From Enchytraeus crypticus (Eukaryota > Annelida > Clitellata > Enchytraeida > Enchytraeidae): a DNA stretch of 64,000 nt. The notes under the pieces are model-generated. The model searched no databases, was not told where the DNA came from, and saw only the letters and a program-made list of their open reading frames with translations. Below, piece by piece: positions 20,559 to 48,104 of this stretch (positions within the stretch are counted from its first letter, which is position 1; each line of letters begins with the position of its first letter). The stretch spans positions 43,501 to 107,500 of the forward strand of contig CAJHZI010000753.1 in the NCBI GenBank assembly GCA_905160935.1. Reading direction: 5' to 3'. A program made the translations under genes and the position numbers.

Positions 20559-23500
20559 ATGGAGAACTACATACAGCGACAGCTCCTGGTTCATCTCTTG
20601 CTACTAGTCAGTCTATCAGCTCTGATCAACAGGAATCGATGCCTCGCTCAGGGTATCTAAATACTAAACAAATACTATTTAAATACTATAGAAATTCTAG
20701 CCTCTTTATATACTATTTGAATACTATTAAAAAATAATATTTCAATATTATCTTTTTAACATACGTTAAAAAAGGACAAATCCTCTTGTTTTCAGTTGAG
20801 CTGATAGCACAGCTGAAGAAGAAGAGATGAGTGTGGTTGCAGTTGATGCTGATTTTATTGTAATAACTGACAATAACTGAACCTTGTCCAGAAACAATCA
20901 GCCTTTAATAATATATGCTGTTATAAGTAATAATTATTAAATAATAATAAATAAATTAGTTATATTTTTTATAATTTATAACCATAATAGTCATTATAAC
21001 CATAATATCCATAATAGTCATTATACTAATAATGATTTTAATGAAAATAATTGGTAATCAAAATAACAATAATAATAATAATATTTTCAATTTTGATATT
21101 AATCTATCTCTCTGGTGCTCTATCAAGCGGTAGGTCGAATGTACATAATCACAATAATAATATTTATAATCTGCAGTTTGAACTGCAATTATTCCTATTT
21201 AATTTAATTTAAATTAAGGTAACATTTAGCTTAGATGCCAATAGCCTTACCACTGTATGGCTGATGACTATACGTTAACGAGTCTTTAAACAAATTATGC
21301 GATTTTGAAATGGTTTCAGAATCAAATCCACGTGTAATGATAATATTTATGCCCTAAATTATTAATTACTGGAAATCCCTTTAAATATAGATGCATGTAT
21401 ATTCAGCTATAGTAGAGCTGAATGTTTGCTTACATAGCGCACGCGTTTCTATTTCCTAACTTTACGCACCAAAATATTTGTTACGAAGTTTAATTTTTGT
21501 ACTCTTAGTATTTTAAATATTTGTTATGTTTCCTTCTCTATTCAATATTATTCATCGTTTTCTTTTGATGGCGGAGATTGCCAATACCGCAGTTATAAGA
21601 ATAATTTTCCTACGCATTGAGGTCCCTTTTTTAGCTGTGTCGTCATATGGTTAACTGGCATGAGACAATAGTGCTAAATGTTCGGTCGCACGCCTGTGTG
21701 GTAGATAAAACTTAATTTATTTGTTGTTTTATTATTTTAGCAACAGATCCCATTGAAACGACAGCGGTATCTTCATCAGTGGGTGAGAAAAATCTGCTCT
21801 TTGATAAAAGAAATTAACTTAAATGTTTAACAGTTTATTGTTTTTGGTTTATGGTTCGTTGTTTATGGTTAAAATACGCACTATATCCACATGATTATCC
21901 ATTTTGACAACTAGTACTTTTAGTATGATCAATTTAATTTGCTTTATACATATGAGTCAATTATCCATTTTACCAGTTCTGTCATATAGTCTCAGAGATC
22001 TGAAAGGCAGGTCCGGATTTACCATGAAACACTTTAAAACGTGTTTAGGGCCCCGGGGCCCCGAGGTTTCTTCTAAAATTTCTTAGATTTCAAAGGGTTA
22101 TCACTACCCTGACATAATGAACTTTAATAAAACGTTTTGGGGGTTATGGCTAATGTAAGAATTTTAGGGGACCCCTTGCATAAGTGCTTCGGGCCCACCA
22201 AGGTCTAAATCTGGCACTGTTTTCCATAGTACAGCATAGTATACGCTAGTACGGTTTGCCATAGTACAACATAGTATGCACTGGTACGGTTTGCATAACA
22301 CAGCATAGTATGCACTGGTACGGTTTGCAATAGTACAGCATAGTATGCACTGGTACGGTTTGTCATAGTATATCATAGGCCCGGATTTACCATGAAGCTC
22401 TTGCAGTACGTGCTGAGGGCCCCCCAAAATTTCTTCAAAAAATTTCTTTAGGCTTCGAAGGGTTACCACTACCCTAACAAAAATAACTTAAAATAAAAGT
22501 TTGGGATTAGGGATAAGGTAAGATTTTTTGGGGGCCCCCTTGCTCAAGTGCTTCAGGCCCCTAAGCTTTAAATACATATACATATATATGCAATGAACCT
22601 GGTTTTGTCCAGAAACAAAATCACTATATTGTTATAAATCATGACCTTCGAGACATTCCAGACATACAAGTATTACATATAAGACTAGTATTATTTTTCT
22701 TGGACAAAAGTTCAATTCGATATCTTTTGTAATAAGTAATAAATAATGCTTCATTATTAAATAAAAGTACTAACAAAGTGTAATTCTGTAATAGACGTTA
22801 TATACAGACGTTATATACAGACATTATATGCGATAATGAAAATGGTTCTGTTATGACAATCAGCCGAATAACAAGAAAGTATATAATAAATTAGGACTTG
22901 TGTAAACCACTTAAGAAAATATGTAGTAACATTTATTAATGTGTATGTGTCGGTAGCTGTGCTAGGTATATGTGCTAAGATTATGTGCTAGGTATATGTG
23001 CTGATAAAGCTAATGTTAACGTCAGTTTCCTCACTCGAAAGCGATGTCAGTGAAGGGCGAGCCCAGGATTTGAACTCCGCGCATACTGATCCGCGGTCGA
23101 ATATCTTACCGACATCGCCACTGGCTCCAGCCAGTATATGTATGCTAGGTATATGTGCAAGATATAAGTGCTGGGTAAATGTGCTAGTTACATGTGCTAG
23201 GTATATTTTCTAGGTGCATGTGCTTGGTACACGTGTTAAGTATATGTGTTAGGTATATTTGCTAGGTAAATGTGCTAGGTATATCTGGTAGGTATATGTG
23301 TTAGGTATGTGTGCTAGGAAAATGTTCTAGGTGTATTAATGTGCTAGAGATTTATGTATGTACTAAGCATATGAGCCAGGTATATGTGCTAGGTATATGT
23401 GCTAGGTATATGTGATATGTATATGTGCTAGTATATGTGCTAGGAAAATGTGCTGGTACAGTATATGTGCTTGGTATAATGTGTAAGGTATTTGTTCTAT

Positions 23501-48104: not shown

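What the first reader, a model, noticed from the sequence alone, without database searches (positions are those of the whole stretch)
20559..48104. Giant DOMON protein with two unrelated coding satellites: candidate undescribed surface or secreted system
Twenty-one exons join in frame from a signal peptide to a terminal hydrophobic helix. The protein combines two DOMON domains, two Cys-rich DOMON-derived modules, a 15-residue Thr/Val repeat of about 2.4 kb and a 7-residue Asn repeat of about 3.9 kb. I know of no described family with this combination. A ligand-binding head on long, variable stalks would suit adhesion, mucus, biomineral or gamete-surface roles, but nothing in the sequence picks one.
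Basis: partly seen in the sequence, partly recalled or inferred. Interest (0 to 1): 0.82.

Follow-up and report, generated by a model that had tools for sequence, protein, structure and literature searches.

The report
Worm surface protein with repeat stalks
A soil worm has a very large gene that seems to encode a cell-surface or secreted protein stringing together DOMON-type domains and two long, unrelated repeats; a second locus of similar build in the same genome suggests a real, little-known protein family whose job is still a guess.

Summary
The genome is almost certainly Enchytraeus crypticus, an annelid: its mitochondrial contig is 15,205 bp, the published size. I rebuilt 20 exons at 20559-48104: leader, two true DOMON domains (Pfam E 3e-11, 5e-14), two Cys-rich modules, a 15-residue and a 7-residue coding repeat, a hydrophobic end. 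The Cys-rich modules derive from DOMON: same intron phases 1-0-2-1, profile-profile E 5e-10. They are constrained (pS 0.176, pN 0.023). A diverged locus on C331 has a similar order with other repeats, which favours one gene. Correction: neither repeat exon reads through in one frame as assembled. The indels sit in five patches, and each end of a 734-bp exact internal copy meets a patch; assembly error is likely, and repeat lengths are unreliable. The heme-ligand Met and His are missing, so a heme role is unlikely. Best reading: an anchored or shed surface-coat protein with DOMON-fold modules on repeat stalks. Function is inferred, not shown. New variant of a known kind.

The parts
20559..20652 (+). 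exon 1: start codon and leader ([31 protein letters not shown]), ends in phase 1
   Evidence: signal peptide judged by eye, no program run
21741..21782 (+). exon 2: short linker
   Evidence: phase 1 to 1
26844..26995 (+). DOMON 1 exon a
   Evidence: spliced DOMON 1 matches PF03351 at E 3.3e-11
28020..28078 (+). DOMON 1 exon b
   Evidence: phase 0 to 2
28728..28918 (+). DOMON 1 exon c
   Evidence: phase 2 to 1
29469..29540 (+). Pro/Thr-rich linker exon
31003..31157 (+). DOMON 2 exon a
   Evidence: spliced DOMON 2 matches PF03351 at E 4.5e-14
31577..31635 (+). DOMON 2 exon b
32386..32630 (+). DOMON 2 exon c
34066..34128 (+). linker exon L2 ([20 protein letters not shown])
   Evidence: duplicated as L3
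34744..34886 (+). Cys-rich DOMON-derived module 1, exon a
   Evidence: (module with linker E 0.0022, below cut-off)
35124..35170 (+). Cys-rich module 1, exon b
   Evidence: 47 nt, as are the best exon-b candidates of C331 modules A and B
35821..36101 (+). Cys-rich module 1, exon c
36627..39178 (+). Thr/Val satellite exon; 45-bp repeat 36738-39149 coding VTT(R/G)[11 protein letters not shown]
   Evidence: all 34 indel runs lie in 37164-37624 and 38304-38741
39486..39548 (+). linker exon L3, copy of L2
   Evidence: 52 of 63 bases identical
40318..40460 (+). Cys-rich module 2, exon a
   Evidence: 141 of 143 bases identical to module 1
40737..40783 (+). Cys-rich module 2, exon b
   Evidence: 41 of 47
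41171..41451 (+). Cys-rich module 2, exon c
   Evidence: 272 of 281
43241..47539 (+). Asn-rich satellite exon; 21-bp repeat 43431-47295 coding TNAPNEN, then a Ser/Pro/Thr tail
   Evidence: all 26 indel runs lie in 43993-44172, 45162-45316 and 46161-46481
48010..48104 (+). last exon: [34 protein letters not shown]; membrane helix or GPI signal, no cytoplasmic tail
   Evidence: one search stopped one base short of the stop codon's end, read; no anchor program run

Best explanation
One annelid (Enchytraeus crypticus) gene encodes a protein of very roughly 3,000 residues that enters the secretory pathway and stays attached to, or is shed from, the outer cell surface through a hydrophobic C-terminus without a tail. 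Four DOMON-fold modules (two ordinary, two Cys-rich derivatives) are the folded parts. The Asn-rich repeat, probably disordered, and the Thr/Val repeat act as spacers. It most likely works as a surface-coat or adhesive matrix protein (epithelial coat, cuticle, mucus or cocoon) whose modules bind other matrix molecules rather than heme. Shown by computation: gene parts, DOMON homology, constraint on the Cys modules, a second locus of similar build. Inferred: secretion, anchoring, spacer role, binding partner, tissue.
For: Exons with matching splice phases outside the repeats, all four modules 1-0-2-1. Both DOMONs above cut-off. DOMON profile (6 modules) against Cys profile (5 modules, two of them 97% identical): probability 96.6, pairwise E 5.4e-10, 128 columns. 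DOMON profile finds dopamine beta-hydroxylase 4zel, E 0.0013. Linker plus Cys module: 18 synonymous and 10 non-synonymous differences, pS 0.176, pN 0.023, while the introns align only in short stretches. C331 locus with a similar order: leader-like exon, 2 modules alignable to DOMON, Cys modules, other coding repeats, and a hydrophobic end further on. Asn repeat without predicted structure in AlphaFold2 (mean pLDDT 40). Heme Met and His absent in window DOMONs (motif from PMC10691727, passages). A coral DOMON protein with a C-terminal transmembrane segment is grouped with matrix/adhesion proteins (PMC3204972, passages).
Against: No transcript, protein or expression data. Repeat exons are frame-broken as assembled. 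No ligand identified. The Thr/Val repeat shows no significant codon-position bias. A PDB search with DOMON 2 alone found no DOMON structure (4 matches, best E 0.8, unrelated); the Cys profile found none of any kind. Of 7 paralog modules scanned, C331 DOMON 1 and Cys A have no DOMON match at E 1, and Cys B, Cys C and C331 DOMON 2 are below cut-off. Satellite S+T content is low for a mucin (20% and 15%). That the C331 parts form one gene is itself inferred: I did not splice it through, it holds a 5,000-base N run, and retroelement-like frames lie before its hydrophobic end. Gene conversion could also keep the two Cys cassettes alike.
Confidence: 0.52

Rival explanations
1. A secreted structural precursor (mucus, cocoon or tube material) that is cut apart, so that the repeats, not the DOMON modules, are the working part.
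For: Two unrelated coding repeats make up 6,277 of 9,082 coding bases as assembled; the C331 locus repeats a module-plus-repeat cassette.
Against: Strong constraint on the Cys modules and a hydrophobic end in the window gene and probably at C331 argue for an anchored protein with working modules. Cleavage sites not tested.
Confidence: 0.2
2. Two or more neighbouring genes rather than one: a DOMON gene and a separate Cys-module-plus-repeat gene.
For: No transcript evidence; an intron of 5 kb before DOMON 1; the frame is broken in the repeats as assembled.
Against: Splice phases fit across every join outside the repeats, and C331 has the same kinds of parts in a similar order, though its one-gene status is also inferred.
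Confidence: 0.15
3. A decaying gene: the repeat exons are truly frameshifted, so only an N-terminal part is made.
For: 60 indel runs in the two arrays and a net frame change in the Thr/Val exon; two of the SPVSDV repeat copies at C331 are also frame-broken.
Against: Indels lie in five patches with about 410-990 bp free of any elsewhere in the arrays; each end of a 734-bp exact copy meets a patch; the other exons are open; module 1, before the first break, and module 2, after it, differ mostly at synonymous sites. The published assembly is a PacBio and Illumina hybrid made with MaSuRCA. The patches were defined after seeing the data, and a real recent duplication could also give the exact copy.
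Confidence: 0.1
4. A redox protein: DOMON domains bind heme and pass electrons, as in cytochrome b561-DOMON ferric reductases.
For: DOMON membership; DOMON 1 has a Met a few residues upstream of the expected place.
Against: Met and His absent at the aligned places in both window DOMONs; no cytochrome b561 match on C655: the 3 matches in the genome lie on C385 and C461 (searched without regard to introns).
Confidence: 0.03

Closest known systems
C331 locus in the same genome (about C331:1654400-1706400)
   Same: Leader-like exon, two modules alignable to DOMON, then Cys modules, exon-b candidates fitting phase 0 to 2, coding repeats, hydrophobic end without tail
   Different: Other repeats (VSGGSPVSDGST; SPVSDV), more Cys modules, one exon-a sequence at four spaced places; Cys modules 23-37% and DOMON-like modules 24-31% identical to the window's; a 5,000-base N run; not spliced through
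Abalone shell protein like ferric-chelate reductase 1 (PMC6003135, two passages read)
   Same: Extracellular matrix protein with signal sequence, a DOMON domain and disordered regions
   Different: Has a reelin domain; passages mention no coding satellites
Coral DOMON membrane proteins (Acropora B5; PMC3204972, passages read)
   Same: DOMON protein with a C-terminal membrane segment, grouped with matrix/adhesion proteins
   Different: Passages mention no satellites or Cys-rich derivatives
Knickkopf family of insects (PMC4140639, passages read)
   Same: Surface DOMON protein with GPI anchor or membrane C-terminus; binds chitin and is needed for cuticle order
   Different: Two DM13 domains and one DOMON; no DM13 match in the six window pieces scanned
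FRRS1/SDR2-type cytochrome b561-DOMON proteins (PMC10691727, passages read)
   Same: DOMON domain
   Different: No cytochrome b561 found and no heme ligands in the window gene

Membership tests
DOMON domain (PF03351), modules 1 and 2 | profile match above the curated cut-off | tested here: met
   43.9 and 53.2 bits, cut-off 32.7
DOMON domain (PF03351), Cys-rich modules | profile match above the curated cut-off | tested here: not met
   module 1 18.7 bits, E 0.0022; module 2 not scanned; derivation from DOMON rests on hhalign and intron phases
Heme-binding DOMON | Met in the SXDXXMGXD region and a downstream His | tested here: not met
   absent at the aligned places in both window DOMONs, present in both C224 modules (read by eye); ligands named in PMC10691727
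Cytochrome b561-DOMON proteins | cytochrome b561 membrane domain in the same gene | tested here: not met
   no PF03188 match on C655 among 3 in the genome
Knickkopf | two DM13 domains before the DOMON | tested here: not met
   Pfam scan of 6 pieces gives no DM13; linker L3, Cys module 2 and the Thr/Val exon were not scanned
Mucin | long S/T/P-rich domain with dense O-glycans | tested here: inconclusive
   S+T+P 27% and 30% in clean parts of the two repeats; 44% and 42% in two C331 repeat frames, flanks included; glycosylation not testable
GPI-anchored proteins | cleavable C-terminal GPI signal | not tested
   tail-less hydrophobic end fits a GPI signal or a membrane helix; no predictor available

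The most novel reading that the evidence does not exclude
An undescribed annelid family of surface proteins in which Cys-rich DOMON derivatives and newly arisen coding satellites are paired as a cassette that is duplicated as a unit, so that each gene, and perhaps each individual, carries different length-variable stalks, for example for self/non-self, gamete or microbe recognition.
Probability: 0.2. Interest if true: 0.75.

Novelty: new variant of a known kind. Interest (0 to 1): 0.5.

Why it matters
If true, a domain usually linked to redox or sugar binding has been turned into a constrained Cys-rich module and paired with satellites that differ completely between two related loci. That would make it possible to ask how coding satellites are born and swapped inside a kept protein framework, in a worm that is a standard test animal in soil toxicology.

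Tried and rejected
Rejected: heme/redox role (ligands missing; no cytochrome b561 on C655). Rejected as proof: the confident AlphaFold2 beta-solenoid for the Thr/Val repeat (180 residues, pLDDT 87, pTM 0.68), because AlphaFold2 is known to give confident, unrealistic solenoids for perfect repeats (PMC11795689, abstract and outline seen). The Asn repeat, as contrast, came out without structure (pLDDT 40, pTM 0.11), so the solenoid stays an open hint. Led nowhere: PDB searches with DOMON 2 alone and with the Cys profile; a Reeler search, whose control genomes also gave nothing; literature listings for DOMON with molluscs, annelids, mucins or tandem repeats, where nothing listed described such a protein; of these only PMC6003135 was opened, for passages. 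Not settled: whether the Thr/Val repeat occurs elsewhere in the genome. The Asn repeat pattern had 139 matches; the 100 listed all lie in this array, the other 39 were not shown.

Full report
Source. The window is C655:43501-107500 of a 524,188,772-base, 802-contig genome. Its mitochondrial contig C802 is 15,205 bp and carries, on my reading of the frames and tRNAs, the common annelid gene order, which I recognised from memory. The published Enchytraeus crypticus genome has a 15,205-bp mitochondrial genome with gene order as in Lumbricus, 525.2 Mb and 35.4% GC, and was assembled from Illumina and PacBio reads with MaSuRCA (PMC8460440, passages read). Contig counts differ (802 here, 910 published), so the identification is very strong but not by name.

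Gene model. Twenty exons fit splice sites. All four three-exon modules, DOMON or Cys-rich, have phases 1-0-2-1. The first exon encodes a hydrophobic leader and the last ends in a hydrophobic stretch with a Cys run and no tail; both were judged by eye.

Domains. Of 6 pieces scanned, DOMON 1 (E 3.3e-11) and DOMON 2 (E 4.5e-14) pass Pfam's cut-off, Cys module 1 is a weak DOMON match (E 0.0022), two pieces match nothing, and the C-terminal piece has only three matches at E 0.13 or worse, none of them DOMON. Cys module 2 and the Thr/Val exon were not scanned. The six-module DOMON profile and the five-module Cys profile align over 128 columns, pairwise E 5.4e-10. Of 7 paralog modules scanned, both C224 modules are strong DOMONs (E 4e-25 and 1e-24), C331 DOMON 2 is below cut-off (6e-6), Cys B and Cys C are marginal (0.08 and 0.097), and C331 DOMON 1 and Cys A have no DOMON match. 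This looks like a gradient from canonical to very diverged DOMON.

Ligands. In animal b561-DOMON proteins a Met within SXDXXMGXD and a downstream His are the probable heme ligands (PMC10691727, passages). The two C224 modules keep both; both window modules lack them at the aligned places (by eye; the C224 middle exons are best-scoring candidates). DOMON 1 has one Met a few residues upstream. The genome's 3 cytochrome b561 matches lie on C385 and C461. The window protein is therefore unlikely to be a heme or b561 protein.

Selection. The two linker-plus-Cys cassettes differ at 28 of 534 coding bases, 18 synonymous and 10 not (pS 0.176, pN 0.023), while their introns share only short alignable stretches. 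Gene conversion cannot be excluded. In the Asn repeat 161 of 1,282 third-position bases differ from consensus, against 20 of 1,288 and 32 of 1,280 (p 2e-40); the Thr/Val repeat does not differ significantly by position (p 0.07). Repeat units are related, so these p values are too small.

Frames. All 34 indel runs of the Thr/Val array fall in 37164-37624 and 38304-38741, and all 26 of the Asn array in 43993-44172, 45162-45316 and 46161-46481. A 734-bp stretch, 44175-44908, recurs exactly at 45430-46163; its left end meets a patch in the first copy and its right end meets a patch in the second. I read this as faulty patching of a tandem array by a hybrid assembler. That is inference: no reads were available, the patches were drawn after the fact, and a real recent duplication is possible. 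The sum of exons, 9,082 bases or about 3,027 residues, is nominal.

C331. At about 1654.4-1706.4 kb lie a leader-like exon (MMSAKLFIVLFALTLQIEATG), two modules alignable to DOMON, Cys modules A and B, a VSGGSP/VSDGST repeat, and a Cys module with an SPVSDV repeat whose exon a occurs at 1680449, 1684545, 1688359 and 1692380. After a 5,000-base N run come another Cys exon c, a short repeat exon, retroelement-like frames, and a frame ending GADVAKKCAGAALGTFGAAALLVLLLACLL-stop. I did not splice this locus through; that all of it is one gene is inferred. Two of the SPVSDV copies are frame-broken as assembled. Window DOMON 2 looks closest to C331 DOMON 1 by its C-terminal end (by eye), so modules do not correspond one to one.

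Other DOMON loci. A Pfam search of the genome gave 9 exon matches on C224, C359, C106 and C149 and none on C655 or C331; I take this to be because exons are scored one at a time. C224 has a PEG-type repeat frame before its DOMON exons (by eye). C684 has three DOMON-like repeats with Met and His kept, then a kringle-like exon and a PTPCTGPDC repeat frame that may belong to another gene (by eye).

Mechanism. Leader, tail-less hydrophobic end, extracellular domain type, an Asn spacer without predicted structure and constrained Cys modules together suggest a surface-coat or adhesive matrix protein. Knickkopf, which binds chitin and is needed for cuticle order (PMC4140639, abstract start, passages), an abalone shell DOMON protein (PMC6003135, passages) and coral DOMON membrane proteins (PMC3204972, passages) show that DOMON proteins can sit in such places; they are analogies, not tests of kinship. 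Tissue, partner and anchoring remain unknown.

Noticed in passing
window 41724-42692 (+): Reverse-transcriptase fragment (RVT_1, E 3.7e-19) inside the intron between Cys module 2 and the Asn satellite exon.
   Followed up: partly
window 9999-12361 (+): Retrotransposon remains with endonuclease (E 8.7e-8) and reverse transcriptase (E 4.7e-28) matches; probably a non-LTR element reaching from about 8638 to 12836.
   Followed up: partly
window 57131-59322 (-): Part of a neurotransmitter-gated ion channel gene (Neur_chan_LBD, E 3.2e-10 at 58987-59322); 57131-57454 looks like its membrane part but has no Pfam match at E 0.001.
   Followed up: partly
window 55955-56578 (-): Hydrophobic open frame with a below-cut-off Otopetrin match (19.5 bits against 27.8); may be the end of the same channel gene.
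   Followed up: no
window 51509-53116 (+): Two long open frames with hydrophobic stretches, perhaps a multi-pass receptor; no Pfam match at E 0.001.
   Followed up: no
L053-L054 (C684:162000-181999, minus strand): Three DOMON-like repeats that keep the heme Met and His, then a kringle-like exon and a 1063-residue open frame rich in PTPCTGPDC repeats (by eye).
   Followed up: no
L028-L030, L045 (C331:1680400-1692500): Module-plus-repeat cassette recurring at about 3.8-4.1 kb spacing, up to a 5,000-base N run.
   Followed up: partly
window 44175-44908 and 45430-46163: 734-bp exact copy inside the Asn satellite; each end of the match meets an indel patch in one copy: probable assembly duplication.
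   Followed up: yes
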